From Acytostelium subglobosum LB1 (lineage: Eukaryota > Evosea > Eumycetozoa > Acytosteliales > Acytosteliaceae), in NCBI RefSeq assembly GCF_000787575.1, contig NW_012236501.1, forward strand, positions 95,671 through 159,670: a stretch of DNA of 64,000 nucleotides. The letters are read 5' to 3'. The notes under the pieces are model-generated. The model searched no databases and had not been told where the DNA came from. It saw only the letters and a program-made list of their open reading frames with translations. Within the stretch, counting starts at the first letter, position 1. Each line of letters begins with the position of its first letter. Made by a program: the position numbers and the translations under genes. Below, piece after piece: positions 4,478-25,485 of this stretch.

Positions 4478-4990
4478 GTAGTGACCAACATGTCATGCAT
4501 GGCAGAGGATAGCAATAGATTGGTGTTTAGTCTAATAATCAAGACGGGCAGTGTCCTCATGCTCGAGACCTTTATCAATATGACTGGCAATCGACTGCTG
4601 CCCATTGTCACAGTAAGGGAGCTGGTGGAGGCCATGGGCAAAGGGAGCGAGCAGTTTGTACGCCTGATCCTCCAACATGCATCCTCTGTAGAGACCTCCC
4701 CCAGCACATCAATGATGAATATGCCCAACGGTGTGGATGTCAGCATGCTCCGCCTCATCCACGAGGAGTTCAAAATTGGCCACAGGCACAACTTTGTGTG
4801 GAAGGTAGCCTTGAGTAGTTGTATCCGCTGCAACATGATGGAGAGTGTGCAATACATCCTGGAGGATCGCAACCCACCGTTGATCTATCTAAATGGTTGG
4901 GACCGAGCAGAATATATTCAGCTCCTCTGTGACATCTGCACTTTTGGTCACATCGAGCACTTCCAGGCAATGATTTCACAACGCCCCGAG
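4478..4990 (+). pseudogene. Ankyrin-like A/B family gene 1, 5' part, truncated and then split by the Polinton
   Basis: Similarity to the paralogue at 29229 starts abruptly at the TNMS motif and runs through LIIKTGSVLMLETFINMTG and EQFVRLILQ up to SQRPE at the element boundary. The first 110 or so residues, including the F-box-like start and the KGxxLL...ATQYFI block, are missing. Past 4990 the open frame continues 36 codons into the TIR, which is fortuitous. The same gene resumes at 25486 in the matching frame after the target duplication. Function in this family is unknown: the repeats look like degenerate ankyrin repeats of a protein-interaction scaffold. Confidence 0.8.
4985..4990. repeat. 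Left 6-bp target-site duplication CCCGAG
   Basis: CCCGAG directly precedes the first base of the left TIR (4991) and is repeated at 25480-25485 directly after the right TIR. Six base pairs is the duplication length established for Polinton/Maverick integration. Confidence 0.9.
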
Positions 4991-5403
4991 GTGTGTGATT
5001 GCTGCCTCGCGGCAAACTTCCATATCGATTCCGAGCCTGCGGCTCTTCATCTCCATTCCGACTCTTTAGTTTTATACATTTATTTTACTATTAATTAATA
5101 ATAGTTAATTAGTTAATTAAGTTAAGAGATTTTTAAGACTTTAAAAAAATAATATTCCAAAAGAAATACAAACAAAAATCTCTTAACTTAATTAACTCTC
5201 TAACTCTCAAGATTTTCCAAGCGCAAATCCCTATCATCATTCCAGGCGCAAGTGTTCACAATCGTAGAAACAAATACTGGCAGTAGAGCGATAGTTTCAT
5301 CGTCAGAGTTGTGGTGAGTTCATCGTCAATCAGATGGTTGGAAATAAACGAAAGTAATATAAGAATTATTTTGTTTGGTATAGTTAGAAAGAATGCCAAG
5401 AAC
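4991..5403 (+). repeat. Left terminal inverted repeat of the Polinton (about 413 bp)
   Basis: It matches the reverse complement of 25069-25479 with a few substitutions and one short diverged patch near 5220-5250. It starts GTGTGTGATTGCTGCC. The match runs through the start codon and first codons of the helicase gene (ATG at 5393), so the terminal genes at both ends share a 5' leader and presumably a promoter. Confidence 0.92.
5112..5196. repeat. 23-bp perfect inverted repeat (hairpin) inside the left TIR
   Basis: Arms 5112-5134 and 5174-5196 are exact reverse complements, separated by 39 bp. The same structure is kept in the right TIR. It could be a replication or terminal-protein signal, a regulatory hairpin or a fold-back. 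None of these is shown by the sequence. Confidence 0.85.
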
Positions 5404-7285
5404 TCAAGAATTGACAGTTGAGGAGATTGAGAAGAATATCAAAGAACAAAAGGCTTTGCTCAAAAAGGCAAAGGATGAACGATCCAAAATATTATTTGGT
5501 ACCAATCTAGAGCGCTTTGATTTAGATACATTAGGTGCCTTGGTATTCGATTGCAAAAAAGAGACTGATTGGGAGAAGGTCACCAATTACATACGACAAT
5601 ATTTTGTTAAAATAAATGATTCCATCGGAGTAATCATGTATGATCCAAAACCCTCAAAAGGAAGAGGTAATTTTATAACCCTCAGTTGGGAGGATTGTAC
5701 AAAAAACTTTTTTCTCAAGGACCATTCAATTACTATTGGAAAGGTAGTTTATTCAACCAAAGATTGGTTTGTAAATAGGGATACCGAGAGATACCACCAG
5801 GTATTGGATCCGTCTATTCCTTCAATGACATATATTGAGGACAAGAGTAAATATGTAAATTTATTCACAGGGTTTAGATTCAAAGACAGATCCCAATTTG
5901 ATGAAAGAATGAAGGATAAAACATTCAAACAAAAGGTGACACAAGGAAAAGAGTTTATCTGGAAGCACGGCAAAGAGGTTTTGTGTTCAAACCAAGAGGA
6001 TCAATTCAGATTCTTTAAAATGTTGATTGCTGCATTTGTCATTGGTAAAAAAACCCAGGTTATTTTATTCTTAAAGTCCATCCAAGGTGCTGGTAAGAGT
6101 CTATGGCTAAAGATTATTAAATTGGCAATGGGAATTAGATTAATTTTGGAAACAAGCAACCCTGGTATTCTCATGCCCAACGAGTTCAATGACGAATTGA
6201 TTGGGAAGATACTTGGAATATTCGAAGAAATGCCGACCAGTTCAAAGTCTGATTGGGAGAAGCTATCAAACAGTATGAAACATTTTGTAACAGGAGATTC
6301 AATTAGGATCAATGTAAAAGGGAAAACACATTTCTTTATTGATAATTTTTTAAATATTATTATTTGTAGTAACAGGGATGCTATCAAATGTGAAGCAGCA
6401 GACAGGAGAATTTTTATTACTGATGTTTCTAACCATAGAGTTAAAGATTACCCTTATTTCGATCAATTGGGAAAAATATCTGAAGACCTGGACACTATCG
6501 AAGCTTTCTATTGGGAGTGAATGGACATTTATGATCCTGAGTTTGATTTTAGGATTATCCCAGTAAGCAATTATAAAAATGATTTGATTGTGGATAATCT
6601 ATCGGCAGTTTACAAGTTTGTTAAGGAGGCATATTTATTAAAAAATAAGGACTTAAAATTACCTCTTAAACAATTTTATGAAGAGTATGTTGATTACTGT
6701 AACCGACATAAACTAAATGTTCAATCAAAAATCAAAGCCAATGAAAAGTTAAATGAGATTGGAATTTCCATCAAATCTGGTACTGCTAATAAACAAATGT
6801 TCGATTATAAATTGAGTGCCATTAAAGTAATTTTTGAGAAGAATAATTTCATGTCCAAATATGATGAGCCAGATGAAAAAGAGGACGAGAAAATTATTTT
6901 ATTAGAAGGGGAAACTGATGATGAGTTCCAAAAGAAGCTGATGGCCCAAAATAAAAAGATGGCCGAGAAACTAGAAGAACAAGAACTGTTGATTAAACAG
7001 AATAAAATATTGTTAGAGAGACTGGATGTGAAAGATAAAATTATCAATGGCCTTAAGACGGTCATGAAATTTAAATCTGGAATCCCCTTGTGCTACAGCG
7101 GAGAGGAGGAATCTAAACCTATAAAAAGCAAATCAATTAGAAATCGATCCATTCCAATGTTTGGTGATTCAGATGATGAAAGTGATAACGAGCCATCTGA
7201 ATGTATTGAGACCAGCTCAGATGTCAGCTCAGATGATGAAGAGATTATGGATTTTTGCCAGTCCATTGCACATAAATATAAATAA
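5393..7285 (+). CDS. SF3 (D5-like) helicase with an in-frame TGA
   Basis: A superfamily 3 helicase, which would unwind viral DNA during replication. Residues about 155-160 carry a YVNLF element as in D5-type proteins. Walker A is QGAGKS (231-236), Walker B is IFEE (about 277-280) and motif C is IIICSN (322-327). A TGA at 6518-6520 stops the frame after 375 residues. The next codon is ATG and the same frame runs another 254 codons, through the expected C-terminal lid, a coiled coil (EKLEEQELLIKQNK) and an acidic Ser/Asp tail. The two parts therefore look like one gene of about 630 residues whose TGA probably replaces a Trp codon. An assembly error, real inactivation, or reinitiation at 6521 are all possible. 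The start codon lies in the TIR. No archaeo-eukaryotic primase motif was seen. Confidence 0.85.
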
Positions 7286-7606
7286 CAACAATTAATTAAT
7301 TGTAATTATTTATGTACCTTCTTTGGAGCTGGTTTCCTTTTCTCATTAGCCAAAACATTCCATCTCTTTGCCTTTGGATCATCCTTTGGTGGTACATCAT
7401 CTTTTTTTTTCTAGATACAAGGGTCATAGAACCCAGGCCATATTGTCGAGTGTTTTATTTTTGAGAGTGTTAAGGATTGGAAGTTGTTTTTGTGCTATCG
7501 AATTATTTAGTGCTTTCGATTGNATTGNGTGTTTTTGTTGNTNAGGATCATTTGGACTCCAACTTGAGGTCTAGTTCGGGTCAGGGAAGCTTGACTTTTC
7601 AAAGTA
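7286..7606 (-). pseudogene. Degraded 3' end of a minus-strand gene, possibly the packaging ATPase
   Basis: Read on the minus strand, 7410 to about 7309 gives a short basic C-terminal tail ending KPAPKKVHK and a stop. Upstream, other frames give short pieces such as WPGFYDP, broken by stops, a 9-T homopolymer and four ambiguous bases. The stretch ends at the TA where Tc1 copy 1 inserted. A gene running leftward from the other Tc1 site (the ATPase start at 13201) could once have ended here, but the middle is missing. The assignment is inference. Confidence 0.3.
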
Positions 7607-9203
7607 CAGTACGTTTCATAAGTTATGGCCACCCCCTGAGCAAACAGATAGGTGATTGATATCTCTTCAATATTAAGAGATACCAAATGATATCTTATCT
7701 CTCTAAATAATAGACTCAATTATCTACTAATCTTGATTGAATTACTTATTGCTAGTTATATTTATTTACAAATAATTGAATGAGAGTGTTGAAATGATAA
7801 GTAGTGAACATGGCCATTATTTATGCAACGAAAATTGATCGAAGGTATCGGAACGATGAACTAGAATAATGACAAAGGAGGTTGTCAATATTTGGTCCAC
7901 CATCCATTCGCTGTTATAATGTCCTCCATTCGTTGTGGCAAGGAGGCGTATAGGTTCTCAACAATGCTGTCATCCATTAGCTCCCATTGTTCATTGGCAA
8001 GGTCGGAAAGGACCACTCCAGGGTTCTTTGCCAGCTCTCTCTTGACTCTCTTCTTCAAGATCGCCCAAAGATTCTCTATAATGTTGATGTCTGGTGAATA
8101 TGGGGGAATGAATAGGGTGGGTATCCTCTTCCTTCTCCAGTGGCTGGTGACATTTGTTGCTCTATGAATTGGACAGTTGTCCATCGCCAGTGTAAAGTCT
8201 GGGAGTTGGCCATGATAATATCGGATGGATCGAGAGTATGCATCATCAAGAATCTCCGTGTATTGAGTGTTTTCTAAATTGCCTTCAATCTCAGAGAGAT
8301 ATCCGACACCAGCACTCGTGACACATCCCCAGAAATTGACCTTGGTTCCGGGAAGTCTCCTGATGCCATGAACTCGACTGAATGTGTTGTTATCTTGTCT
8401 AGCCCACTCGTGTTGACGGTAGTTCTTGATGTTGGACTCAATTGTGGTCTCATCACAGAATACTATCTGTTCCCATTGTTCCGCTGTCCAGTCTCGATGA
8501 GCCATAGCGAACTGGAGCCTTTGATCTGCGTTTACTTGCTTTAGATCGTTCTTCCTGCTTAAACTGCGATAGGTGAGACCTTCCTTTGCAGCGATACGAG
8601 ATATTTGAGCCGTTGATATCTCTGTATCGTATCTCAGTTCAAGTTTGGCTTTCAACTCGTCCAAAGTGATGACCTCCTTCCTGACCAAAGCTTTGATGAT
8701 CCTCCTTCTAAGTCTTCTTGAAAACTTTGAAGGGCGTCCCGATTTGAGACGGTCCTTGAAGTCTCCTCGCTCGCTGTGTCGTTGAATAGTCCTGCTCACA
8801 GTTGATCGGGAAATATTGTACATCTTTGATATTAATTTCTTTGAATATCCTCTCCTTCTGGCTCTCACGATTTTAGCTCTCTCTTCTTCTGTTAATGACA
8901 TGATTAATTGTAATGTACATAAATAATATTCTATCTCTTCCAACAAAGTGTTTGATGTTTGAACTCATTCATTCTTTACTATTGCATAAATAATGGACAT
9001 GTTCATTACTTTAACAAAAATATCGTTTGAATGATAAAGATATATTAATTCCATTTTTGGAAAAATATTCATAAATGGAAATTTTTGAGCAAAAGTGGAC
9101 TACTATATTTGGAAGTGAATAAGAATCTTGAACCATATTTGTAGGAGATATCAAACTCGTACCTGTTTGAACAGGGGGTGGCCATAACTTATGAAACATA
9201 CTG
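7607..9203 (-). mobile_element. Tc1-family transposon, copy 1 (1,597 bp), flanked by TA
   Basis: The ends are CAGTACGTTTCATAAGTTAT at the left and the inverted form with one change (CAGTATG) at the right, each next to a TA duplication (7605-7606, 9204-9205). The inverted repeats extend about 32 bp into GGCCACCCCCTG. It carries one intact transposase and is the same length as copy 2 at 11472-13068, in the opposite orientation. Confidence 0.95.
7885..8901 (-). CDS. Tc1-type DD34E transposase (copy 1)
   Basis: Cuts and pastes the surrounding Tc1 element at TA sites. An N-terminal helix-turn-helix pair (KLISKMYNISRSTVSRTIQ, then the ITLDELKAKL region) precedes the RNase H-fold catalytic triad: D in FCDETTIES, D in AMDNCPIHR and E in IIENLWAIL. 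There are 34 residues between the second Asp and the Glu, the spacing of the Tc1 family. The start is placed at MSLTEEER (8901), giving 338 residues, because the 15 codons upstream look like 5' leader. The product is identical to that of copy 2, so the element moved recently. Confidence 0.95.
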   Translation of the reverse strand: MSLTEEERAKIVRARRRGYSKKLISKMYNISRSTVSRTIQRHSERGDFKDRLKSGRPSKFSRRLRRRIIKALVRKEVITLDELKAKLELRYDTEISTAQISRIAAKEGLTYRSLSRKNDLKQVNADQRLQFAMAHRDWTAEQWEQIVFCDETTIESNIKNYRQHEWARQDNNTFSRVHGIRRLPGTKVNFWGCVTSAGVGYLSEIEGNLENTQYTEILDDAYSRSIRYYHGQLPDFTLAMDNCPIHRATNVTSHWRRKRIPTLFIPPYSPDINIIENLWAILKKRVKRELAKNPGVVLSDLANEQWELMDDSIVENLYASLPQRMEDIITANGWWTKY

Positions 9204-9221
9204 TACCAAATAATATATAGA

Positions 9222-9596
9222 ATGTACGCAGTACCAGTTTCTCATCGAAGAGCAGCGCTGATTGATGCTTATCAAGGTGGACATCATCAAAGATACACAA
9301 GTTTGGGAGGTCAACCATCACCATTTGGCCATCATCCTGGAATGCATGGAGATGGATTCTTTGATTGGATTAAGAAGGCCCATAATGCTATTAAAGAACA
9401 CAAATTTATTAGTAGAGCAGCAAAAGCATTAGATGTTGCAGGGGTTCCTTTTGCAGGTACCGTTGGCACTGCTGCTGAAGCAATGGGTTATGGAAAACCT
9501 AGACGTAGAAGACAAACAGGAGGTACCTCATATGGAATTGATGGAGGACGTAAAAGAAAGGCCAAAACAGGAGGAAAGAGGAAGAGTAAGAAATAG
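9222..9596 (+). CDS. Small basic virion/core-like protein, possible adenovirus pVI/pX analogue
   Basis: 124 residues. A Gly/His-rich start is followed by an amphipathic segment (residues 46-70, beginning FFDWIKKAHNAIKEH), a small-residue stretch, an RRRR cluster (94-97) and a Lys/Arg-rich tail. Two short strings fit the known adenain cleavage patterns (M/I/L)xGx-G and (M/I/L)xGG-x: MHGDG (41-45), just before the amphipathic helix, and IDGGR (107-111), just before a 15-residue basic tail. That layout is like adenovirus pVI. The resemblance is inferred; no homology search was possible. The gene lies 17 bp right of Tc1 copy 1, which may have cut off its upstream promoter, though ATATATAGA remains right before the ATG. 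Confidence 0.6.
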   Translation: MYAVPVSHRRAALIDAYQGGHHQRYTSLGGQPSPFGHHPGMHGDGFFDWIKKAHNAIKEHKFISRAAKALDVAGVPFAGTVGTAAEAMGYGKPRRRRQTGGTSYGIDGGRKRKAKTGGKRKSKK

Positions 9597-9615
9597 ATAA
9601 ATTAGCCCAATGGGC

Positions 9616-10473
9616 TTAATTATCTAACAAATAAGAAACTGTTGTTGGGAGGACTACAATCACTTGATCATTTGTTTTAATCGATGAACCATCCTGTGCC
9701 GTGATAAAAAAGGATCCATAAAGTGTGAACATCCTTGCAGGAATTGGAACATTTATTTGATAGAATCCTGGCATTGTAGCATTTCCCCAGAGTTTAAAAG
9801 GGACAAAAGAAGCAGATCTAATAAAATCATTTGATGTTGTAGTTGGAAATGTTACTTCAGAGAATGTAAAAGTTACAAGGTTACCAATTCTTTGGACAAT
9901 AGCACTACCTTCTGCAAGTACGTCTCCATATCCCCATTGGAAATAAAATTTATCAAACTCATAATTAATTAAAGGTAATGATCCCAAACCAAGAACAATT
10001 CCATCTTTAAAAGTTTTGGTTCCATTTATTATTTGATCAGTCTCTGAAATAATAATATTTGCATGTGGAGAATGAGTAGGAAGATTTATTATTGATTGAT
10101 TGTCTGTCTGGACATTGAGAGTGATTTGGTCCTCAACTCCAAACAATACTCCTCATAGTTGACTACGAGAGGATCGTCATAAGGTTGACGTATCTTGACG
10201 CGGTACTAAAATTAGAGCTATGAAGATACCCTTGGAANGGAAAGTAGTTGGTGATAATAAGGCATTATGTTCCCGATNTGGCAATNGAAGTCGAATATTT
10301 GGTGTAACAGATAAATGACCTAAATAATCAAGATTTTGACGATGAGGAGTATTGACTCCAAATGTTATTTGATTGGTGTTTGATTCGATATTGAGCTGAT
10401 CAGTTATGATGAGGCTATCAACGGTTGTAATATCAGGGGACTCAAAATCATTAAACAAATCGATGTATTCCAT
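9616..10473 (-). pseudogene. Fibre-like virion protein gene, apparently frame-broken
   Basis: Two reading frames follow each other on the minus strand: 10473-10177 (start MEYIDLFNDF) and 10146-9616 (176 residues, no ATG at its start). Both have beta-rich, Asn/Thr-rich sequence typical of fibre shafts and heads, including TDQIINGTKTFKDGI, a motif common in viral and phage fibre proteins. The second lacks its own start and the first ends in a short out-of-frame stretch with three ambiguous bases near 10238-10287. They probably form one gene broken by indels or assembly errors. The likely role is host attachment. Confidence 0.5.
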
Positions 10474-11458
10474 ATATATGAGTGACGAGTATTATAAAAC
10501 TTTTGGATTGAAGCCTGTGAACAAGGATTACTTGGACAAGCAAGAGTTGTACAAATTGTATTTACAGCCAAAGAAAGACAAGGGATTGAACTTGCCACAC
10601 TATCAAGTGTTTGAAACAGGATTGAAACAACAAGCTGATTTATTATTCCTACCGGATGATGATGGATACAAATATGCTTTGGTAGTTGTTGATCTTGGAA
10701 ATCGATTGACTGATGCCGAGCCATTGAAGAATAAAACAAGTGCAGGAGTGAAGTATGCTTTTGATACCATTTATAAAAGAGGTATTTTGGTGATGCCCAA
10801 ACAGATACAGGTGGATCCAGGTAGTGAATTCAAAGGTGAGACCAAAAAAATGTTTGAAGACAACGGAATATTTGTTAGGTTTGGTGTTCCAGGCAGGCAT
10901 AGGATGCAAGCAATGGTGGAGGCAAGGAACAAGACTCTTGGAACTGTTTTGATGAAGAGAATGACTGCTCAGGAAATGTTGACAGGGGAGACGAGTAAGC
11001 ATTGGGTTGAGGACTTGCCAAAGGTTATAAAGGCAATGAATGAGAGGTTCAAGGTTGATCCAAAGAAAAAGAAACCATTATCTGAATGGGTAACTTGCAG
11101 TGGTGACTCTTGTCATGTGTTGGATGAAGGGACCAAGGTTCGGGTCAAGTTGGAAGAGCCAATTGATTATGCAACCAGAAAGAAGGTGTATGGCAATTTT
11201 AGATCAGGTGATATCAAATGGAATCCTGAAATTAGAACAATTGAAAGGTTATTGTTATTGCCAGGTTATCCACCACTTTACAAGATACAGGGAAGTAAAA
11301 TATATTACACCAAGAATCAATTGCAAGTGGTCCACAAGGATGAGGAGAAACCGCCATTGAGTGTTGTAAGAGGTAAGGATATTGTCGATGTGGATGAGCC
11401 CAAAGAGGTGATTGAATTTGATAGTGATGATGTACCACGACCTTGGCATCGTCGGTAA
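10463..11458 (+). CDS. Retrovirus-type (rve) integrase
   Basis: Inserts the Polinton into host DNA. From the ATG at 10463 the catalytic residues are D59 (in QADLLFLPDD), D118 (in QVDPGSEF) and E153 (in MVEARNK), with 34 residues between the last two. The C-terminal half, with HVLDEGTKVRVKLEEP, fits the SH3/chromo-like end of Polinton integrases. No N-terminal HHCC zinc module is present, so the protein (331 residues, or 326 from the ATG at 10478) may be N-terminally short. Its start region overlaps or abuts the divergent fibre gene start: CATATATATG contains both ATGs. Tc1 copy 2 begins 14 bp after the stop. Confidence 0.9.
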   Translation: MYSIYMSDEYYKTFGLKPVNKDYLDKQELYKLYLQPKKDKGLNLPHYQVFETGLKQQADLLFLPDDDGYKYALVVVDLGNRLTDAEPLKNKTSAGVKYAFDTIYKRGILVMPKQIQVDPGSEFKGETKKMFEDNGIFVRFGVPGRHRMQAMVEARNKTLGTVLMKRMTAQEMLTGETSKHWVEDLPKVIKAMNERFKVDPKKKKPLSEWVTCSGDSCHVLDEGTKVRVKLEEPIDYATRKKVYGNFRSGDIKWNPEIRTIERLLLLPGYPPLYKIQGSKIYYTKNQLQVVHKDEEKPPLSVVRGKDIVDVDEPKEVIEFDSDDVPRPWHRR

Positions 11459-11471
11459 ACTGCAGCACTTA

Positions 11472-13068
11472 CAGTATGTTTCATAAGTTATGGCCACCCC
11501 CTGTTCAAACAGGTACGAGTTTGATATCTCCTACAAATATGGTTCAAGATTCTTATTCACTTCCAAATATAGTAGTCCACTTTTGCTCAAAAATTTCCAT
11601 TTATGAATATTTTTCCAAAAATGGAATTAATATATCTTTATCATTCAAACGATATTTTTGTTAAAGTAATGAACATGTCCATTATTTATGCAATAGTAAA
11701 GAATGAATGAGTTCAAACATCAAACACTTTGTTGGAAGAGATAGAATATTATTTATGTACATTACAATTAATCATGTCATTAACAGAAGAAGAGAGAGCT
11801 AAAATCGTGAGAGCCAGAAGGAGAGGATATTCAAAGAAATTAATATCAAAGATGTACAATATTTCCCGATCAACTGTGAGCAGGACTATTCAACGACACA
11901 GCGAGCGAGGAGACTTCAAGGACCGTCTCAAATCGGGACGCCCTTCAAAGTTTTCAAGAAGACTTAGAAGGAGGATCATCAAAGCTTTGGTCAGGAAGGA
12001 GGTCATCACTTTGGACGAGTTGAAAGCCAAACTTGAACTGAGATACGATACAGAGATATCAACGGCTCAAATATCTCGTATCGCTGCAAAGGAAGGTCTC
12101 ACCTATCGCAGTTTAAGCAGGAAGAACGATCTAAAGCAAGTAAACGCAGATCAAAGGCTCCAGTTCGCTATGGCTCATCGAGACTGGACAGCGGAACAAT
12201 GGGAACAGATAGTATTCTGTGATGAGACCACAATTGAGTCCAACATCAAGAACTACCGTCAACACGAGTGGGCTAGACAAGATAACAACACATTCAGTCG
12301 AGTTCATGGCATCAGGAGACTTCCCGGAACCAAGGTCAATTTCTGGGGATGTGTCACGAGTGCTGGTGTCGGATATCTCTCTGAGATTGAAGGCAATTTA
12401 GAAAACACTCAATACACGGAGATTCTTGATGATGCATACTCTCGATCCATCCGATATTATCATGGCCAACTCCCAGACTTTACACTGGCGATGGACAACT
12501 GTCCAATTCATAGAGCAACAAATGTCACCAGCCACTGGAGAAGGAAGAGGATACCCACCCTATTCATTCCCCCATATTCACCAGACATCAACATTATAGA
12601 GAATCTTTGGGCGATCTTGAAGAAGAGAGTCAAGAGAGAGCTGGCAAAGAACCCTGGAGTGGTCCTTTCCGACCTTGCCAATGAACAATGGGAGCTAATG
12701 GATGACAGCATTGTTGAGAACCTATACGCCTCCTTGCCACAACGAATGGAGGACATTATAACAGCGAATGGATGGTGGACCAAATATTGACAACCTCCTT
12801 TGTCATTATTCTAGTTCATCGTTCCGATACCTTCGATCAATTTTCGTTGCATAAATAATGGCCATGTTCACTACTTATCATTTCAACACTCTCATTCAAT
12901 TATTTGTAAATAAATATAACTAGCAATAAGTAATTCAATCAAGATTAGTAGATAATTGAGTCTATTATTTAGAGAGATAAGATATCATTTGGTATCTCTT
13001 AATATTGAAGAGATATCAATCACCTATCTGTTTGCTCAGGGGGTGGCCATAACTTATGAAACGTACTG
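11472..13068 (+). mobile_element. Tc1-family transposon, copy 2 (1,597 bp), flanked by TA
   Basis: Same ends, length and transposase as copy 1 but in the opposite orientation, with TA duplications at 11470-11471 and 13069-13070. The insertion lies inside a minus-strand gene that reads ...ILICAAKN up to the junction. Two near-identical inverted copies flank 9204-11471, which carries the pVI-like, fibre and integrase genes. Confidence 0.95.
11774..12790 (+). CDS. Tc1-type DD34E transposase (copy 2)
   Basis: 338 residues from MSLTEEER, identical in translation to the copy at 7885-8901, with the same helix-turn-helix region and D, D, E residues. Intact. The identity implies very recent duplication, or assembly of two alleles or copies. 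Confidence 0.95.
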   Translation: MSLTEEERAKIVRARRRGYSKKLISKMYNISRSTVSRTIQRHSERGDFKDRLKSGRPSKFSRRLRRRIIKALVRKEVITLDELKAKLELRYDTEISTAQISRIAAKEGLTYRSLSRKNDLKQVNADQRLQFAMAHRDWTAEQWEQIVFCDETTIESNIKNYRQHEWARQDNNTFSRVHGIRRLPGTKVNFWGCVTSAGVGYLSEIEGNLENTQYTEILDDAYSRSIRYYHGQLPDFTLAMDNCPIHRATNVTSHWRRKRIPTLFIPPYSPDINIIENLWAILKKRVKRELAKNPGVVLSDLANEQWELMDDSIVENLYASLPQRMEDIITANGWWTKY

Positions 13069-13201
13069 TATTCTTGGCTGCGCAGATCAAAATGTTGGCA
13101 TTGACTTGATTGAACAACTTGTAGCCCTTAATTTTCTTTGGTTGTTTTGGTAGTTTGATTGGCTCTACCTGAACATTATTTATTGTTTGTAGCTTGATCA
13201 T
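13069..13201 (-). pseudogene. 5' fragment of a probable FtsK/HerA-type packaging ATPase, cut by Tc1 copy 2
   Basis: Starts at ATG 13201 behind CAAATATAG and gives about 44 codons, ending KGYKLFNQVNANILICAAKN at the Tc1 junction. The pattern of a short start, GYxLF, then a hydrophobic strand and AxKN is how Polinton and virophage packaging ATPases enter the P-loop. The expected GKS/T is not found after the junction on either flank. A three-base read-through to the left flank of copy 1 would give TLKS, not a proper P-loop. This would be the element's only candidate for the genome-packaging motor, so the call matters but rests on little sequence. Confidence 0.4.
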
Positions 13202-13256: not shown

Positions 13257-13652
13257 CTATCCGTACTTGACAAACTCAATTGCACAAGTGATAGGTACAT
13301 TTGTTTCCACTCTATTACCATCTTGATTAACACATTCGAAATAATACGATCCTTGGATGAACTTCTCGCTCTTGTTTATGTACTTATAATTTGGTGCAAG
13401 GAAATTAACTTGCTCGGTACTACAGAATAATATATTATCAGGTATCAAATTTGTTCTAATTACAGCAATTTCATTTCCAGGTGCATTGAATAAACATGAG
13501 TATGACTTTAATATTATTAGATCTGGGACGAAATCAATATTGATGGATTTCCAAACTTTGCCATCACCTTGATTAGGAGGATCACCTCCAGTTCCAGGTA
13601 AAATTGCATTAATAAACACTGTCTTGACACTCATTGCTTTTGTGTATCCCAT
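13257..13652 (-). CDS. Hypothetical beta-rich virion-associated protein
   Basis: 131 residues, no recognised family. It is rich in beta-forming residues and lies directly downstream of the major capsid gene on the same strand, with only 36 bp between, so a structural or spike role is plausible. The start is supported by ATATATAA directly before the ATG. Confidence 0.7.
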   Translation of the reverse strand: MGYTKAMSVKTVFINAILPGTGGDPPNQGDGKVWKSINIDFVPDLIILKSYSCLFNAPGNEIAVIRTNLIPDNILFCSTEQVNFLAPNYKYINKSEKFIQGSYYFECVNQDGNRVETNVPITCAIEFVKYG

Positions 13653-15121: not shown

Positions 15122-15955
15122 TTAGATCTCCTCTCCTACTTGAATGCTCTCATGATCCTTGACCAGCAAGATCTCAATGTATCCGCGAATGAGCTGAAAG
15201 ATATCGTTGTGCTTATACAGAATGATCGTCAAGTTCAAGTCGACACCATTGAGAAAGATCTCAACTCCATCCTTGTCTGTTAAATAAATGTAGAACGTCT
15301 TCTTGGTCTTTGAGACTAGCTGTTTTGAATATGCTTCGAGGTTATGGTTAGTCCAATTGACGTAGGCAAAGTCAGGCGTTCCAGCAGTACATACCTCTTG
15401 GAGGACATCATCTGATCCATTGCTGCACAAGTCTGAATGAATGTAAAGGATGTTCTCAATCTGCAAGTCGATCACGTTGGTGCTCGTCAATTGTCCATTT
15501 TCAAAGTTGTTGATACTGTCTTGATTGAAACCTAGATGATGGAACAGGTCAGCATCATTGAATATTAATGCTACCTGAATCTTATCGCTTGAACAAATGA
15601 ACGTATATTTACCTGTGTTTGGTTGTTTAGATGTTGGCCATGTGATTGAATATGTTAATTGATTGGGTGATTGTTGTATTAACTGTGTCTGTATTGTGTC
15701 TTGAAGTGATAACCTTGAATAGTTCCCAACAGGTATTGTTATTACAACCTCTTGATCATTCTCTCTAAGTGTGAATGTGTTTCTATTCCTTGGGACTGTG
15801 TAGAATGACTTGGGAATGCAAGCTTGTAACACAGCAACACGATCAAAATCATCATGTTCATAACACTCTATGTTGTATCTAAAATTAGAGATCGTGCCTG
15901 ACAATCTGTTCAGCGAATTGACATAAAAGATCCTCTTGTGGGTGATCAGACTCAT
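15122..15955 (-). CDS. Penton-like single-jelly-roll minor capsid protein
   Basis: 277 residues from MSLITHKRIFYVNSLNRL (15955); a longer frame to 15997 would overlap the divergent gene start. The start, with YVNS followed by SNFRYNI and later AVLQACIPKSFYTV and FTLRENDQEVVITIPVGNYS, matches minor capsid proteins of Polintons and virophages, which fill the vertices. Its position next to the major capsid gene is also typical. Confidence 0.8.
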   Translation of the reverse strand: MSLITHKRIFYVNSLNRLSGTISNFRYNIECYEHDDFDRVAVLQACIPKSFYTVPRNRNTFTLRENDQEVVITIPVGNYSRLSLQDTIQTQLIQQSPNQLTYSITWPTSKQPNTGKYTFICSSDKIQVALIFNDADLFHHLGFNQDSINNFENGQLTSTNVIDLQIENILYIHSDLCSNGSDDVLQEVCTAGTPDFAYVNWTNHNLEAYSKQLVSKTKKTFYIYLTDKDGVEIFLNGVDLNLTIILYKHNDIFQLIRGYIEILLVKDHESIQVGEEI

Positions 15956-15988: not shown

Positions 15989-16414
15989 ATGCCACAAATA
16001 AAGAGAGGTTACGCAGGATCAGCAGCCAACTTGGCAAAGTGGAGAGAAGAACAGAAAGCATTGAAAGAGAGTGCTTATGTGTTGTATGACTCTGATGATG
16101 ATGGAGATAATGGTGATGGTGATCAACAACCACCAGCTACAGTTGAACAACCAAAGACAATTGTCGAATCAGTGAAGCCCAAACCAGTACGAGCAACCAA
16201 ACCTCGTGTCAACAAGACAGATCTGATGGACAAGAAACTTGATGAGTTGATGGAGAAGATAAACAACTGGGAAACCACTCAAAAGAAGCCAGCCAAGGAG
16301 GCAGAGCCACTCGTCGTTCAAACTGCTGTCCCAGTTGCTCCAATCGCACAACAAATCGTACGTCCACCTCTGCGATCAGACATACTCAAACACAGACTAC
16401 TGACTAAATTCTAA
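15989..16414 (+). CDS. Small acidic/basic hypothetical virion-type protein
   Basis: 141 residues starting MPQIKRGYAGSAANLAKW, with a central Asp/Gly-rich stretch, a Pro/Lys-rich linker and a short coiled coil (LMDKKLDELMEKINNWE). No family recognised. It is divergent from the penton-like gene across 33 bp containing TATATAATAAC, so both may share that promoter, and it lies 18 bp before the protease gene on the same strand. Confidence 0.7.
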   Translation: MPQIKRGYAGSAANLAKWREEQKALKESAYVLYDSDDDGDNGDGDQQPPATVEQPKTIVESVKPKPVRATKPRVNKTDLMDKKLDELMEKINNWETTQKKPAKEAEPLVVQTAVPVAPIAQQIVRPPLRSDILKHRLLTKF

Positions 16415-16432
16415 CGATCATATATATGTATA

Positions 16433-18601
16433 ATGGTTAGACATGACGTCCATTTAGAGATCAGCGAGAGCACCAAGGGCAAGAAGCTCAGAGTAAAGAT
16501 AAAGAAGATTAGACCAGCGCGATTGCGACGCGACAAGAATGGCCGATATATCATAAGTAAGAAGGGGAGAGTTTACATCAAGTCTCGCAAGTCAGACTTG
16601 AAGTTGATCAAGAAGCTGATTGCAAAGGCATCCAATGCCAAATCCATACTGACACCATCAACTTCATCACACATGACACCAACAGAAGGAGCATACATTA
16701 GATCAATACAGGACGCCAACTTTAGAGAAGCGCTGATCAAGAATGCGAGAGACTTGGAACAACAGACCAGGGCCAAGGTCGATGCGATCGTCAAGGAACA
16801 TGAGCGACCAGCGTCAGCACTGCCAGCACCAGAACAACTATTACTCGATGCAGCAATACCAGCAGCAGCGCACGAGATTGGTGAGCATGGTATCAATGAA
16901 GGTGACCGCGTTGTCCATGTGTTCCAGGATGTGACACCACCTCAATCAGATGATGAAGAAGAGAGCGATTATGAACAACCCGGCAGCTTTGACAGACTCT
17001 TCGAGAGACAGAACGCAACTCATGGATTGCTCGAGCAGACTCATGCCAACCTCCTCGACATCAAGCAATCACTAAACAAGCGATTCCAACAAGATATTGA
17101 GAAGCTCGAAATCGAAGCGGCTGTAGAGCAGAAGAGGCATGAGTTGGAAATGGCAAGACAAGCAGCTCAACGTGAACGCGATCAGAATAACATGATGGCC
17201 AAACTCGACAAGCTACTAGCGGAGAGGAAGACAATCAACAAACAAGAGTCACCTGACACAGCCAAGCTAGAATATATCGATGAACAGATTGAACTCATAG
17301 GACGCCAACTAGATAATGTTGATGTCAAGAGAATGCTGGATGAGGCTGTTAGTGAACAACGATTGGAGCGCGAGTTGGAGAGAGCAGAGAGAGAGAAACA
17401 AAAGACTGTTGAGAACATGAAAGCACTAGAGGTCATGGCAGCGGCTGCGGCGCCGAAACAGAAACAACCCAAGCCTTCACTACTCAAGAAGCCATTGCCC
17501 AGCACGTTACCCAAGGCTGTTCCACCAGCGAGACCATCGCCGGTGTTAGCTCCCGAAGTAACACTTCGTGATGTTCCAAAGGTAAAGACAGAGCCAGAGG
17601 CAACATCACCATACAGCACTCCTCCACAAACCTCAACTACTACCACAACAACGACAACAACTAACAAGAGATTATCCATCCCAGCATCCAGTATCAAGGC
17701 AATCAAGGACGTACCCAAGGAGCTGACTCCAAAGGTGGAACCAATCATACAGAGATACATGGATGGAGACGCGACCTTGACCAACCCAACAACACTCTAC
17801 TATCAGCTGGGCAAGGAGTTGAGGACAGCAACAATCAGCCAAGATGAGAGACGGGATCTGCAGAGACAATTAAAAGATGATGCGATACAGGCGAAGCGAA
17901 TACAGGACATGAAATCAATGCAACAAGTATCAGCATCAGTCGCACCTGAAGTGTTGGATCTTATCAAACAGTACTGGGCTGGTGACATTGGATCGAAACA
18001 GTTTGGTACACTATTAAAGAAGGAGCTCAAGTATGAGAAGAACAAGGTCATGTTGTTNGATGCTATTGTTAATGAAGCCAACGATATGAGAAAGGGCAGC
18101 GGTAAGGTTGAGGATGGTGGACTGTATGATTACGAGATTGAGAAGTTGATGATGCCGTACACCAAGTATGGGTTTGAAGGAGTGATCGCGTCTGATCAAT
18201 TGGATGAGCTGAAACCAAAGCAGCGAATGTCATTTATTATGAACTTGGACAACAGCCATCAGCCTGGCAGTCACTGGGTCGCATGTAACATTGATGCAAA
18301 GGGTGACAAGGCGATCGAGTACTACGACTCGTTTGGTGATGATCCGAGCTCCGATTTTATGAAGAGGATGAAGCAGTTGGTTGGAGAGATCGACCCAGAT
18401 GTATATTTAAAGTTCAAAGTTAATAGAGTGATCGATCAAGCAACCAATAGCGACAACTGCGGCTTCCACGCCATGAAGTTCTTGTTGAATCGNTATCGAG
18501 GTGTTCCATTCAAGGAGGCGAGTGGATACAGTGATGTGAGGAAGGAGGAAGGGAAGGCGAGAGAGATGAAGGAGAAATACAAGAAGTTTGGNTATTTATG
18601 A
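16433..18601 (+). CDS. Adenain-type cysteine protease fused to a long coiled-coil protein
   Basis: 722 residues. The C-terminal 140 or so residues carry the Ulp1/adenain fold signature: His614 in GSHWVACNI, Asp632 in YYDSFG, Gln669 seven residues before Cys676 in SDNCGFHA. This enzyme class processes capsid precursors. Upstream is unusual: a basic start (about 1-70), an acidic patch (EEESDYEQ), a long Glu/Arg/Lys coiled coil (about 205-340), a Pro/Ala and polyThr linker, and helical repeats. Typical Polinton proteases are only 200-300 residues, so the front half is probably a second, scaffold-like or core protein in the same polypeptide. Three Ns near 18058, 18493 and 18592 give undefined residues but no frame break. 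Confidence 0.85.
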   Translation: MVRHDVHLEISESTKGKKLRVKIKKIRPARLRRDKNGRYIISKKGRVYIKSRKSDLKLIKKLIAKASNAKSILTPSTSSHMTPTEGAYIRSIQDANFREALIKNARDLEQQTRAKVDAIVKEHERPASALPAPEQLLLDAAIPAAAHEIGEHGINEGDRVVHVFQDVTPPQSDDEEESDYEQPGSFDRLFERQNATHGLLEQTHANLLDIKQSLNKRFQQDIEKLEIEAAVEQKRHELEMARQAAQRERDQNNMMAKLDKLLAERKTINKQESPDTAKLEYIDEQIELIGRQLDNVDVKRMLDEAVSEQRLERELERAEREKQKTVENMKALEVMAAAAAPKQKQPKPSLLKKPLPSTLPKAVPPARPSPVLAPEVTLRDVPKVKTEPEATSPYSTPPQTSTTTTTTTTTNKRLSIPASSIKAIKDVPKELTPKVEPIIQRYMDGDATLTNPTTLYYQLGKELRTATISQDERRDLQRQLKDDAIQAKRIQDMKSMQQVSASVAPEVLDLIKQYWAGDIGSKQFGTLLKKELKYEKNKVMLXDAIVNEANDMRKGSGKVEDGGLYDYEIEKLMMPYTKYGFEGVIASDQLDELKPKQRMSFIMNLDNSHQPGSHWVACNIDAKGDKAIEYYDSFGDDPSSDFMKRMKQLVGEIDPDVYLKFKVNRVIDQATNSDNCGFHAMKFLLNXYRGVPFKEASGYSDVRKEEGKAREMKEKYKKFXYL

Positions 18602-21107: not shown

Positions 21108-21108
<1 letters not shown>

Positions 21109-21164
<56 letters not shown>
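21109..21164. repeat. (TCAA)n microsatellite
   Basis: About 14 tandem copies of TCAA between the convergent spliced gene and zinc-finger gene. The same tetranucleotide dominates many host introns in this window. Confidence 0.95.
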
Positions 21165-21168
<4 letters not shown>

Positions 21169-21172
<4 letters not shown>

Positions 21173-21360
21173 CCAATGTCGTAGTGCATCCCCCTCTTGT
21201 GTTGCCTCATCATATGCCGCGAGATCAACTTGCCACAGTACGCGCATGGTATCCTCTCTGTGTTGTAGGCCTTGATCTCCTCCTTGAACTCCTCGTAGTA
21301 CTGTTGCATGTAAGACTTGTTGGTTTTGCCACTCCTGTCTATTGTAGTCTGTACGTCCAT
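21169..21360 (-). CDS. Small C2H2-like zinc-finger protein
   Basis: 63 residues from ATG 21360: MDVQTTIDRS..., a helical YYEEFKEEIK segment, then PCAYCGKLISRHMMRQH followed by HYDIG, a CxxC...H...H finger. It resembles the terminal protein at 24867-25079 in architecture (helix, then a finger with an Arg/His-rich helix), so the two may be paralogues. Probably a DNA- or RNA-binding regulator; this is inferred from the finger alone. Confidence 0.6.
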
Positions 21361-21421
21361 ATTGATGGAAGTAGAGATTATAAAGCAAGTGGGATTATTC
21401 CTAGTATTACCCTGGTAATCT

Positions 21422-21940
21422 TTAATCACTGTCACTGTCTGATGTGTCCTCATCATCATCATTATCGTCGGAGTCGTCATCATCTTCGTCTATTTGCATT
21501 TGTGCCTGTTCCTCCTCTTGTAGTGCCAATGCCTGATCTACTGTCAACTCGGGATAGATGGAGTTCGTTGTCTCCAACCTGAGTACATGTACCTCTCTGG
21601 CGCAGTAGGGGATCCACCTTGTGTTCTCATGGTCTCGGAGTGCCAACGCATCGGCAATACATTGAATCCTAGTACATTGTCTAAAATAGACTGACTTCTG
21701 CATTCGTGCATATCCCATTGCTGTCAATTGGGGTCGTATTCGTTGAATAAAGTACCAGGCACGAGCGTTCCTATGACCAGCAGTGTTGAACTTGTCAGGA
21801 TGGTTTGGTGGCAATCTGTTTGCTGGAGTTCCTTGTCCAGGTGGGGACATATAGCCGGTGAACTCATCCAGACGAGGACAACCAATATCGAATGATATAC
21901 AATGAGTCAGTAACTCTGGGGCAGGGTGTTGATGAGCCAT
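21422..21940 (-). CDS. Hypothetical protein with acidic C-terminal tail
   Basis: 172 residues, no recognised family. The N-terminal 130 residues look globular (LNHP-type prolines, HRNARAWYFIQRIRPQL). The last 30 are almost all Asp, Glu and Ser. Such tails are common in DNA mimic, chaperone-like or scaffolding proteins. It shares its strand with the zinc-finger gene 61 bp downstream. Confidence 0.65.
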   Translation of the reverse strand: MAHQHPAPELLTHCISFDIGCPRLDEFTGYMSPPGQGTPANRLPPNHPDKFNTAGHRNARAWYFIQRIRPQLTAMGYARMQKSVYFRQCTRIQCIADALALRDHENTRWIPYCAREVHVLRLETTNSIYPELTVDQALALQEEEQAQMQIDEDDDDSDDNDDDEDTSDSDSD

Positions 21941-22126
21941 TCTCTTGATGGTGAATGAAGAGTGACAGATGAACTACTGGTGTGCAAGTTCAATGATCTT
22001 TAGTGTGTGCTTGGAGATTCAAATTAATAAAATTAAATGAGATTGACCGGTGAATTAAATTCCTTTGTCACACCCCAAACTTCATTCATCCTTCCACTGA
22101 ATTATAACACCAACAAATACACATCA

Positions 22127-22486: not shown

Positions 22487-22553
22487 GTATACTCCCGACA
22501 TTCAAGTGCCCTCAACAACTCGCGATATATATATTCTACTAAAGAGCAGGTGT

Positions 22554-24422
22554 CTACCAACAACTATTGTATTTAAACTCTCCAACAGTCTTGCGCATGT
22601 TAGTGACAATGGCATCGGGACAGAAGCCCTCATATTTGAGATCACCGCACTCCTCGCCAATCTTGGGATAATCAAGTGATTGCTTGCTTGTCTTCTCGGT
22701 CCAGGGCTTGGTCGAGACGAATCCATCAGTGTGCACACGTTTGATGTTGTCAATGTCGTCCTTTATTATCGTTCCAATCATCTTGCGACCACGAGAGATG
22801 ATGAATGGCATGATGCGAGCGAATGGCGTGACGTACATCTTGTCGCTGGAGCCAAGCTTGATATTGACATTACCATTGCTCGCTGCTGTGACACTCAAGA
22901 TCGTGTCGCAATCGCGAACATTGCATTCGAACGATCGGTGTGTCATCTTACCATTCTTGGTCTCCATCACTGTTGGCTCGGTGTTGACCACGACGTGCTT
23001 CTTGCGCGTTGTCTTCTTTGCCAGTGCTCCCCAGAGACGTTGATAAAGCTGCTTGCAGAGCCCTTCTAATCTAGATTTGGGTTCGCATGCGGCTTTCCAT
23101 CCAAGGACCTGATTGATATATTCGCCAAACATGATCGAACCGGTGACCCTGCCAGTGGGATAGAGGAGAGCGTTGTTCTCGCTGTCATCGATCAAATTGA
23201 ATGTCAGTCCTAGCTCCTGCGCGAAAGTGAGGTTGTAGTGAGTGTAGTAGTTGTGATAGTTGAGTTGGAACGCTCGATGAGAGCCATTGATGGTCGCCCT
23301 ATAAATACCAAATGGGATGCATTTCACAAGCTCGGCATCAGTGAGTCGTTGGAACTTGCCTTTCTTGGTGGGCACGGCGAAGGTGCTGCTCTTCATGATT
23401 GCTGCATACATCGCCGAAACGTCATACTTGTACAACGGTCCTTCGTATGGTTCTGAGTATTGAAATGCTTTGCTCGACGCCTTGGCGATCCATTGCGCTT
23501 CATCGAGCTCGAGATGATCTGCTTCAACTGTTTGATTGTATTTGTAGAATAGGTCGAGGGCTGCGTTGTTAATATTGTGTCCTGTGAAATACATGTCGAT
23601 GGCGCCGTTGGTATGTGCCTTGAGAGCATCTGCATCACTTACGAATTGATCGAGGGTCTGTTGCAGTGTCTGGTGGGGAGGGCTCCTGATGAATTGAGTC
23701 TTTGATCGATAATTATTTCTGTCCTCGTCGTAGAACTGTGATAGTGGCATCATGATTTGATCGACTCCATCCCAGAGCTCTGCCATGTCGCCCTTGAGTT
23801 TGAATGAGACTGGTTTGATGTAAACGTCTTTGTTGTGCTCGCCCTTGTAAATAATACGACATGGCAAGCGCGATGCTTTGATTAGAGAGTAATGGCCGTT
23901 GGTCAGTTTGAGATTGATCGATCTCACATGTGTCGCGGTTGAGTCGTATGAATACTCACCATTGACTTGAATGCGTATTCCAAGCTTGTCCTCGAGACGT
24001 GGGATCAACCTGTAGTGGACGGGATCATAGTCATCCAGGCCGAGAAACTTCTTGAGACGATATGGCTTACCGAAATGATCGATCAGTTCCTTTGGATATA
24101 CCTCCTTGATGCAATCGTAGAGGCAGTGGTTGCGATTGTCGGTGCAACCGCCTCGTGGGTTTAGACTGTGAATGAATATGGAGAACTGGTTGAATATTGC
24201 AGGGTCTTCAATTATGTCAGACTCACCTGGCGCAGTTACCTTTGATCCATCATACAGATTGATCGGTTGACCTACTTTTGTGAATGTGCCTGATCGCTCT
24301 TGACCGTCTGCGTATTTGAGAACAACCTCTATCTCTGCATTGACACCACGATGTCTGAACATATTGTTGCTGTATTGTTGTGATATTCTCTGAGAGAACA
24401 TCTGCTCTTGTGTATCTGCCAT
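22554..24422 (-). CDS. Family B DNA polymerase with N-terminal OTU-like domain
   Basis: 622 residues from MADTQEQ (24422). Replicates the element. Palm motif A is YKYDVSAMYAAIM (D334), motif B is in KQLYQRLWGAL (457-467), and motif C is HTDGF (564-568), where the usual DTD is HTD; the second Asp, the main metal ligand, is kept. No 3'-5' exonuclease motifs are evident. Residues about 90-180 instead show NRNHCLYDCI (C100) and, after a domain of about 80 residues, NGHYSL (H177), the Cys and His pattern of OTU/papain-like folds. The protein is far shorter than typical Polinton polymerases of around 1,000 residues. It could be C-terminally shortened or a divergent class. Confidence 0.8.
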   Translation of the reverse strand: MADTQEQMFSQRISQQYSNNMFRHRGVNAEIEVVLKYADGQERSGTFTKVGQPINLYDGSKVTAPGESDIIEDPAIFNQFSIFIHSLNPRGGCTDNRNHCLYDCIKEVYPKELIDHFGKPYRLKKFLGLDDYDPVHYRLIPRLEDKLGIRIQVNGEYSYDSTATHVRSINLKLTNGHYSLIKASRLPCRIIYKGEHNKDVYIKPVSFKLKGDMAELWDGVDQIMMPLSQFYDEDRNNYRSKTQFIRSPPHQTLQQTLDQFVSDADALKAHTNGAIDMYFTGHNINNAALDLFYKYNQTVEADHLELDEAQWIAKASSKAFQYSEPYEGPLYKYDVSAMYAAIMKSSTFAVPTKKGKFQRLTDAELVKCIPFGIYRATINGSHRAFQLNYHNYYTHYNLTFAQELGLTFNLIDDSENNALLYPTGRVTGSIMFGEYINQVLGWKAACEPKSRLEGLCKQLYQRLWGALAKKTTRKKHVVVNTEPTVMETKNGKMTHRSFECNVRDCDTILSVTAASNGNVNIKLGSSDKMYVTPFARIMPFIISRGRKMIGTIIKDDIDNIKRVHTDGFVSTKPWTEKTSKQSLDYPKIGEECGDLKYEGFCPDAIVTNMRKTVGEFKYNSCW

Positions 24423-24534
24423 TGTAATTGATTTGATCAAAGTTGGCGATCCTGTTCAGTCTTCTAGTACCTTGCGAGTGTGTTCTTGTCATTCTATAAT
24501 TATATTTAGAAAAATATATTTATATTACTTTCAA

Positions 24535-24834: not shown

Positions 24835-24866
24835 TTATAAATTAACTCAAGAAATTAATTTATATG

Positions 24867-25079
24867 TTAATCGTTTATTTTAGCCATCAATTGTTTGTGG
24901 ATATATCCCTTCCTATGGGTATTAATATTGTTTCGGCATAACTCAAAGCCACACTCGCATTGAACCTTCTCTCTTAGATAGGCCTTGTGGCGCTCTCTAA
25001 ACTCTGGATTTGATTGATAATACTCTTTGAATGTCATCTTGACCTTTGGAGTTTCATTTTCGTTGTTTGTTCTTGCCAT
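24867..25079 (-). CDS. Terminal zinc-finger protein whose start lies in the right TIR
   Basis: 70 residues. The helical YYQSNPEFRERHKAYLRE is followed by CECGFELCRNNINTHRKGYIH, a C2H2-like finger of the kind frequent in large DNA viruses and Polintons. The TIR match covers its whole leader, the ATG and the first few codons, so it shares its promoter with the helicase gene at the other end. The two proteins diverge at once after MxRT. Confidence 0.75.
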   Translation of the reverse strand: MARTNNENETPKVKMTFKEYYQSNPEFRERHKAYLREKVQCECGFELCRNNINTHRKGYIHKQLMAKIND

Positions 25080-25479
25080 TCTTTCTAACTATACCAAACA
25101 AAATAATTCTTATATTACTTTCGTTTATTTCCAACCATCTGATTGACGATGAACTCACCACAACTCTGACGATGAAACTATCACTCTACTGCCAGTATTT
25201 GTTTCTACGATTGTGAACACTTGCGCCTTGAAGATGATTTGAATTGCGATTGGAAAATCTTGAGAGTTAGAGAGTTAATTAAGTTAAGAGATTTTTGATT
25301 GTATTTCTTTTGGAATATTATTTTTTTAAAGTCTTAAAAATCTCTTAACTTAATTAACTAATTAACTATTATTAATTAATAGTAAAATAAATATATAAAA
25401 TTAAAGAGTCGGAATGGAGATGAAGAGCCGCAGGCTCGGAATCGATATGGAAGTTTGCCGCGAGGCAGCAATCACACAC
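25069..25479 (-). repeat. Right terminal inverted repeat of the Polinton (about 411 bp)
   Basis: Reverse complement of 4991-5403 with few differences: two near the outer end, one short diverged patch around 25220-25245 that is 2 bp shorter, and single substitutions. It ends GGCAGCAATCACACAC, followed by the CCCGAG duplication. Confidence 0.92.
25274..25358. repeat. 23-bp perfect inverted repeat inside the right TIR
   Basis: Arms 25274-25296 and 25336-25358 are exact reverse complements, separated by 39 bp, the counterpart of the hairpin in the left TIR. Confidence 0.85.
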
Positions 25480-25485
25480 CCCGAG
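25480..25485. repeat. Right 6-bp target-site duplication CCCGAG
   Basis: Follows the right TIR directly and matches 4985-4990. Removing the element plus one copy leaves the host ankyrin-like frame continuous (Pro-Glu followed by Thr-Glu-Trp). Confidence 0.9.

What the first reader, a model, noticed from the sequence alone, without database searches (positions are those of the whole stretch)
4985..25485. A Polinton-type virus caught with exact boundaries inside a host gene
TIRs of about 412 bp, a 6-bp CCCGAG duplication and a host reading frame that is continuous on removing the element give base-exact ends. Few Polintons in amoebozoans can be delimited this cleanly from one contig. The gene set mixes Polinton hallmarks with an SF3 helicase more usual in Polinton-like viruses and virophages.
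Basis: partly seen in the sequence, partly recalled or inferred. Interest (0 to 1): 0.85.

Follow-up and report, generated by a model that had tools for sequence, protein, structure and literature searches.

The report
Broken provirus in social amoeba gene
A 20-kb virus of a known type lies inside a gene of a social amoeba with exact ends, but as assembled it is a broken copy: a jumping gene sits where its DNA-packaging gene was, and its integrase gene is split.

Summary
The boundaries are right. The element is 4991-25479 (20,489 bp), with TIRs of 413/411 bp (401 of 411 aligned bases identical) and CCCGAG on both sides. Removing it leaves a 610-aa ankyrin-repeat frame that aligns across the junction with 4 of 4 non-self window frames that matched. 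Contig lengths point to Acytostelium subglobosum LB1. Predicted folds support a double-jelly-roll capsid protein and a phi29-like polymerase; profiles give an rve integrase, a C48 protease and an SF3-type helicase. Such a 'Polinton' was reported in this species in 2021 (PMC7805220). Two identical Tc1/mariner transposons bracket a block that is inverted relative to 3 of 3 related copies with an integrase. One stands where the packaging-ATPase gene, found in 7 of 7 related copies examined, has been lost. The other lies in a retroelement-like insertion in the integrase gene. A stop codon splits the helicase. The inversion may be an assembly error; the ATPase loss is independent of orientation. 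New lead: in 6 of 15 virus gene families the start codon is preceded by ATATA (0 of 26 host frames), reminiscent of promoter motifs in virophage proviruses.

The parts
4985..4990 (.). target-site duplication, left copy (CCCGAG)
25480..25485 (.). target-site duplication, right copy (CCCGAG)
4991..5403 (+). left terminal inverted repeat, 413 bp, begins GTGTGTGATTGC
25069..25479 (-). right terminal inverted repeat, 411 bp
4490..4990 (+). host ankyrin-repeat-type gene, 5' part (upstream part not found)
25486..26802 (+). host ankyrin-repeat gene, 3' part (Ank_2 E 1.2e-11)
5393..7285 (+). SF3-type helicase gene (PF19263) split by an in-frame TGA at 6518-6520; the equivalent stretch in the C46 copy is one frame
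7306..7401 (-). displaced 3' end of the integrase gene, bounded by one copy of the 13-bp duplication GATGATGTACCAC (7389-7401)
7402..7604 (-). 3' part of a retroelement-like insertion with an oligo(A) end; its 54 bp next to the transposon recur at three other genome places
7607..9203 (-). Tc1/mariner transposon copy 1, intact 338-aa transposase frame (7885-8901, -), TA on both sides
9206..9213 (+). last bases of the packaging-ATPase gene (CCAAATAA), matching the end of the gene in the C46 copy
9222..9596 (+). small basic protein gene, conserved in related copies (71-82% over the longer matches)
9619..10491 (-). conserved gene of unknown function in two frames (three N at 10238-10286); conserved in C21, C46 and C55
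10406..11438 (+). rve integrase, body, up to the 13-bp duplication at 11426-11438
11439..11469 (+). 5' end of the retroelement-like insertion
11472..13068 (+). Tc1/mariner transposon copy 2, identical to copy 1 (0 mismatches in 1601 bp)
13071..13201 (-). first about 44 codons of the packaging ATPase, ending at the Walker A motif
13257..13652 (-). conserved 131-aa gene beside the MCP (54-78% in related copies), function unknown
13689..15080 (-). major capsid protein, double jelly roll by predicted fold
15122..15955 (-). candidate minor capsid (penton) protein next to the MCP, inferred from order and conservation (78-94%)
15989..16414 (+). conserved 141-aa gene, function unknown
16433..18601 (+). 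722-aa protein with a C-terminal C48/Ulp1-type protease (E 1.4e-9); two X in the frame from N bases
21169..21483 (-). small zinc-finger-like gene (by eye), conserved beside PolB in related copies
22554..24422 (-). protein-primed-type family B polymerase, 622-aa frame with an OTU-like N-terminal region; a possible frame break near its start is only weakly supported (24397-24492, E 1.2)
24870..25079 (-). terminal small zinc-finger-like gene (by eye); its start lies in the right TIR

Best explanation
An integrated, defective copy of a known family of dictyostelid Polinton-type viruses. Inferred life cycle: a linear double-stranded DNA with terminal inverted repeats was copied by its protein-primed polymerase and inserted by its rve integrase into an ankyrin-repeat gene, duplicating CCCGAG (ends shown, enzyme action inferred). 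Later a short retroelement-like sequence inserted into the integrase gene with a 13-bp duplication (shown by sequence). A Tc1/mariner transposon then inserted into a TA of that insertion (shown). A second, identical Tc1 copy now occupies the place of the packaging-ATPase gene, of which only the first ~44 codons and last few bases remain (shown). The block between the two inverted Tc1 copies (9204-11471) is inverted relative to related copies, most simply by recombination between the two transposons (inferred), unless the assembly joined it the wrong way round. With no ATPase and a split integrase and helicase, the copy should not package or integrate by itself (inferred).
Against: The ATPase is only weakly recognised by profile (Pox_A32 E 2.5e-4, below the cut-off, in C55; not listed for C21; phage terminase profile 7.1e-6 in C21). 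The capsid, mCP and ATPase roles are by fold, order or motif, not by assay. Ten MCP places and 68 PolB matches in one genome mean that other copies could supply missing functions in trans. The inversion rests on a shotgun assembly with 1.6-kb identical inverted repeats.
Confidence: 0.88

Rival explanations
1. The inverted block is an assembly error: the genome carries tail - Tc1 - small gene - integrase - Tc1 - helicase in the ancestral order, and the assembler flipped the 2.27-kb segment between two identical inverted repeats. (This changes only the orientation, not the other lesions.)
For: The two repeats are identical over 1601 bp, longer than a usual Sanger read (recalled). The assembly was built from Sanger plasmid pairs and Illumina contigs (PMC4334915, passages).
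Against: The same passage reports plasmid clones of ~3 kb and fosmid ends, which can span a 1.6-kb repeat and fix the orientation. No reads were available here.
Confidence: 0.4
2. The element is a complete, working Polinton virus.
For: MCP, candidate mCP, protease and both TIRs are open frames or intact repeats; purifying selection between copies.
Against: No ATPase, split integrase, stop in the helicase.
Confidence: 0.04
3. It is a capsid-less large transposon; the capsid-like gene has another role.
For: Many PolB matches in the genome have no MCP match nearby (68 matches against 13).
Against: The MCP is a full double jelly roll by predicted fold under dN/dS 0.095-0.169 in 4 comparisons, and it sits with mCP candidate, protease and, in related copies, an ATPase. 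At the two PolB-only places of which longer stretches were fetched, C41 showed no capsid-module gene and C53 only the protease, so they look like remnants.
Confidence: 0.04

Closest known systems
Polintons of Acytostelium subglobosum and Heterostelium album with VC20-group MCP (Bellas and Sommaruga 2021, PMC7805220; passages seen)
   Same: Same species; in two of the amoeba entities pPolB and RVE genes lie within 10 kb of the MCP; distant MCP similarity to Singapore grouper iridovirus, which is also among our top fold matches.
   Different: The passages name no locus, so whether it is this copy is unknown. They do not describe TIRs, duplication, nested transposons or ATPase loss for the amoeba copies; supplements were not available.
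Mavirus and endogenous mavirus-like elements (EMALEs) of Cafeteria (PMC8547959, PMC10945749; passages)
   Same: rve-INT, pPolB, primase/helicase, MCP, penton, ATPase, protease; TIRs; target duplications; retrotransposons nested in the provirus; element-specific promoter motifs; replacement of helicase genes.
   Different: Capsid protein not shown to be of virophage type; no giant virus partner known; the nested elements are Tc1/mariner and a short retroelement-like insertion, not Ngaro.
Canonical Polintons/Mavericks (PMC4642659, PMC4028283; passages)
   Same: pPolB, rve integrase, protease, double-jelly-roll MCP. Long TIRs and 6-bp duplications as the usual Polinton ends are recalled.
   Different: MCP reported as highly diverged from known Polintons (PMC7805220); 622-aa polymerase frame; SF3-type helicase present; termini GTGTGTG.
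Tc1/mariner (IS630) DNA transposons
   Same: DDE_3 and Tc3-type HTH domains, IS630 profile E 2.6e-37, TA on both sides; 62-bp ends 89% complementary.
   Different: Nothing unusual; 9 near-identical full-length copies found in this genome, two of them here.

Membership tests
[quoted passage not shown]
Polinton (by gene content) | retroviral-type (rve) integrase | tested here: met
   PF00665 9.6e-8, just over the cut-off; PFV integrase 5.2e-6. The gene is interrupted in this copy
[quoted passage not shown]
Polinton (by gene content) | minor capsid (penton) protein | tested here: inconclusive
   No significant profile match; adjacent to MCP and conserved 78-94%; fold not predicted
Polinton (by gene content) | FtsK/A32-type packaging ATPase | tested here: not met
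   About 44 codons left in this copy; an ATPase-like frame is present in 7 of 7 related copies examined, with weak profile support
Polinton (by gene content) | adenovirus/Ulp1-like cysteine protease | tested here: met
   PF02902 1.4e-9
Polinton (by gene content) | long TIRs and 6-bp target duplication | tested here: met
   also at C46
Polinton (by capsid phylogeny) | MCP in the animal Polinton clade | not tested
   No reference set at hand; PMC7805220 relates an A. subglobosum MCP to the VC20 group of PLVs
Polinton-like viruses, VC20 group | MCP clusters with VC20 sequences | not tested
   VC20 sequences not available here; statement from PMC7805220 only
Mavirus-like virophage | rve-INT + pPolB + SF3-type helicase set | tested here: met
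   that this is the mavirus set is from PMC8547959 and PMC3671162. The label SF3 for the DUF5906/P4-type profile match is recalled
Mavirus-like virophage | virophage-type MCP | tested here: inconclusive
Mavirus-like virophage | depends on a giant virus | not testable with these tools
   No giant virus of this host at hand; only the promoter-like motif bears on it
Tc1/mariner | DDE transposase, short TIRs, TA duplication | tested here: met

The most novel reading that the evidence does not exclude
The family is a set of endogenous virophage-like viruses of social amoebae, kept silent in the nucleus and read by the transcription machinery of an unknown giant virus. Many of their genes carry a shared initiator, ATATA ending 0-3 bases before the start codon, which the host frames examined lack and which is too close to the start codon for a usual nuclear TATA box. 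The window copy would then be a decayed member of an inducible antiviral reservoir, as described for mavirus-like elements in Cafeteria.
Probability: 0.15. Interest if true: 0.75.

Novelty: new member of a known kind. Interest (0 to 1): 0.4.

Why it matters
As a delimited provirus it is one more member of a reported group, now with exact ends, insertion site and a layered history: virus, retroelement-like insertion, two transposons, inversion. It shows how such proviruses are taken apart by ordinary transposons, and it warns that a clean pair of ends does not mean an intact virus. The start-codon motif gives a concrete, checkable handle on how dictyostelid proviruses are expressed and whether a giant virus is involved.

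Tried and rejected
Rejected: a complete virus (three clear lesions). Rejected: the stop at 6518-6520 as a natural gene boundary, since helicase and following domain are one frame in C46; the C46 gene is itself frame-broken further upstream. Considered and left open: a frame break near the start of PolB. A stretch that resembles by eye the first residues of related polymerases lies in another frame at 24492, but tblastn gives it only E 1.2, while the homology in the main frame reaches back to 24443. ATPase elsewhere in the window: not found by tblastn with two relatives. A Pox_A32 search of the genome also hit nothing in the window, but it missed the relatives' ATPases too, so it proves little.

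Led nowhere: two viral-contig scans with the MCP found no relative; PDB sequence searches with the MCP and with PolB gave nothing meaningful; TIRs for C55 and C21 were not found in the stretches fetched; the N-terminal part of the host gene was not found (best E 1.4); the C41 row of the sliding-identity table failed to align and is not used. In one search I listed the C46 ATPase as two frames; that came from my placing two neighbouring pieces in the wrong order, each piece alone, shows one consistent open frame.

Motif work, told in full: the motif was chosen after looking at 41 upstream stretches, so counts on those are post hoc. It first looked specific to virion genes; a later check found it before PolB in related loci, so that reading was dropped. 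For that check 14 PolB loci were given, 9 were recognised by my pattern, 6 of these 9 had the motif at one of 27 candidate ATGs; no Zn-finger locus was recognised. Not met: mCP 0 of 5, protease 0 of 4, integrase 0 of 2 at the listed start (an ATG at 10478 has it), window SF3, PolB and five other window genes 0 of 1 each, MCP missing in 2 of 6, small gene in 1 of 5, o15989 in 1 of 5, and 0 of 5 gene starts at the C8 locus. One listed start (o20086) was not an ATG and does not count. Host starts are first ATGs of long frames, not annotated starts.
Full report
WHERE. The search tool places the window at G000:C25:95671-159670 of a 30.7-Mb assembly in 56 contigs. Proteins named Acytostelium subglobosum LB1 lie on contigs of 1,840,102, 845,936 and 1,108,984 bp, which are the lengths of G000 C55, C43 and C47. 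Another such protein lies on a contig of 1,041,141 bp, close to but not equal to C46 (1,039,331).

ENDS. The element is 4991-25479 (20,489 bp). The TIRs are 413 and 411 bp with 401 identical of 411 aligned bases and two single-base gaps. CCCGAG stands on both sides. With the element and one CCCGAG removed, the host frame is 610 aa long. Joining the left flank to random places gave a frame of 400 aa or more in 32 of 400 trials, so an open frame is only mild evidence. Stronger: the four non-self window frames that matched (29184-31520, 54614-56896, 59302-61500, 48196-49953) align with the joined protein over ranges that include the junction, the first at 42% over residues 4-610. The first two alignments were printed around the joint and have no gap there.

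RELATED COPIES. In the same genome the MCP has 13 matches at 10 places, window included, 4 of them full-length open frames; the integrase 6 matches at 4 places; PolB 68 matches; the helicase one other place, C46. C46:977786-995816 has its own TIRs (477 of 491), the duplication CCTTTG, and leaves a 361-aa frame in its flanks. Between copies dN/dS is 0.045-0.169 in the 12 comparisons made. Identities to C46 differ by gene: mCP 94 and 88% (two pieces), integrase 89%, MCP 69 and 75% (two pieces), PolB 55%, helicase 32-34%. The helicase is closer to a Cavenderia protein (40%). This suggests exchange of genes between lineages (inference).

HOW IT IS BROKEN. (a) Two Tc1/mariner copies, 7607-9203 and 11472-13068, identical and inverted, each with TA on both sides; nine near-identical full-length copies were found in the genome (a lower bound). 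(b) In C21, C46 and C55 the small gene and the integrase point the same way as MCP, and in C22 the small gene does; in the window the block with these genes is reversed. (c) The integrase of C46 is continuous where the window jumps from 11436 to 7378; that C46 frame has two stops of its own. The inserted DNA is flanked by GATGATGTACCAC, found twice in the window (11426, and 7389 on the other strand), has an oligo(A) end, and its 5' end recurs at C52, C39 and C21, continuous across the TA that is split in the window. No reverse transcriptase is in the about 230 bp seen, so 'retroelement-like' rests on ends and duplication. The outer flanks of the two Tc1 copies were thus once the two sides of one insertion. 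(d) Between the 131-aa gene and the small gene, related copies carry an ATPase-like frame: it matches from codon 1 on in 7 of 7 MCP loci given, in C21, C43 and C55 over its whole length, in C46 over two overlapping loci in one frame, in C22 in two frames, in C26 and C47 only over the first part. The window keeps about 44 codons up to Walker A and the last bases CCAAATAA, with TA at both edges, and nothing else of the gene in 64 kb. Two Tc1 insertions in the same direction followed by recombination between them would explain this (inference). (e) TGA at 6518-6520 splits the helicase. (f) A frame break near the start of PolB is possible but weak.

ORDER. TIR difference 10 of 411, Tc1 difference 0 of 1601: the transposons came later than the integration, if TIRs start identical and conversion is ignored.

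ASSEMBLY. Orientation of the block is what a wrong join of the repeats could mimic. The assembly used 3-kb plasmid pairs and fosmid ends (PMC4334915), which can resolve a 1.6-kb repeat, but no reads were seen.

START-CODON MOTIF. ATATA ending 0-3 bases before ATG: 131-aa gene 8 of 8, ATPase 4 of 4, MCP 4 of 6, small gene 4 of 5, o15989 4 of 5; mCP 0 of 5, protease 0 of 4, integrase 0 of 2, and 0 of 1 for each of seven other window genes. Host frames 0 of 26; all ATGs in the element 11 of 839; all ATGs in host DNA 23 of 3307 and in 12 sibling loci 42 of 2161. With the pattern fixed, 6 of the 9 PolB loci recognised (of 14 given) had it, which makes 6 of 15 gene families. Orthologous copies are not independent, and the motif was chosen after the fact. 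EMALEs carry type-specific motifs taken to point to different giant viruses (PMC8547959; PMC10945749).

PRIOR WORK. The A. subglobosum polymerase is listed in legends of published trees (PMC4642659, PMC4409740). A. subglobosum 'Polinton' with VC20-type MCP: PMC7805220. A provirus recombinase gene disrupted by a retrotransposon: PMC4642659. Two searches for Polintons with mariner/Tc1 insertion or inversion showed no such case in the titles and abstracts of the 12 and 8 papers listed; ATPase loss was not searched for, and most subscription papers are not in that library.

CHANGE AFTER CHECKING. The PolB frame break was lowered from a lesion to a possibility, the C46 ATPase corrected to one frame, and 'most gene families' to 6 of 15; the odds of the novel reading were lowered from 0.17 to 0.15 for the last reason.

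Noticed in passing
window starts at 13201(-), 13652(-), 15080(-), 9222(+); siblings L004-L010, L012-L027: ATATA directly before the start codon in 6 of 15 virus gene families, absent before 26 host frames; possibly a virus-specific promoter.
   Followed up: partly
G000:C8:6149-9703 (L052:1165-2472): A 436-aa Pox_A32-type ATPase (7.9e-10) of another type, perhaps from a second kind of virus in this genome.
   Followed up: no
window 22557-22860 (-), PolB residues about 521-616: The last ~90 residues of PolB are about 80% identical to copies whose rest is about 50% identical; possible recombination breakpoint.
   Followed up: partly
window 7607-9203 and genome-wide: At least 9 near-identical full-length Tc1/mariner copies, whereas the table of the genome paper gives 1 under DNA transposons (PMC4334915).
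   Followed up: no
window 5393 and 25079: The outermost genes on both sides start inside the TIRs, so they share the same upstream 70 bases and similar first codons.
   Followed up: no
window 18638-19261 (-), 21425-21940 (-), 22037-22486 (+): Frames without a match in the related copies fetched here; perhaps accessory genes of unknown function.
   Followed up: no
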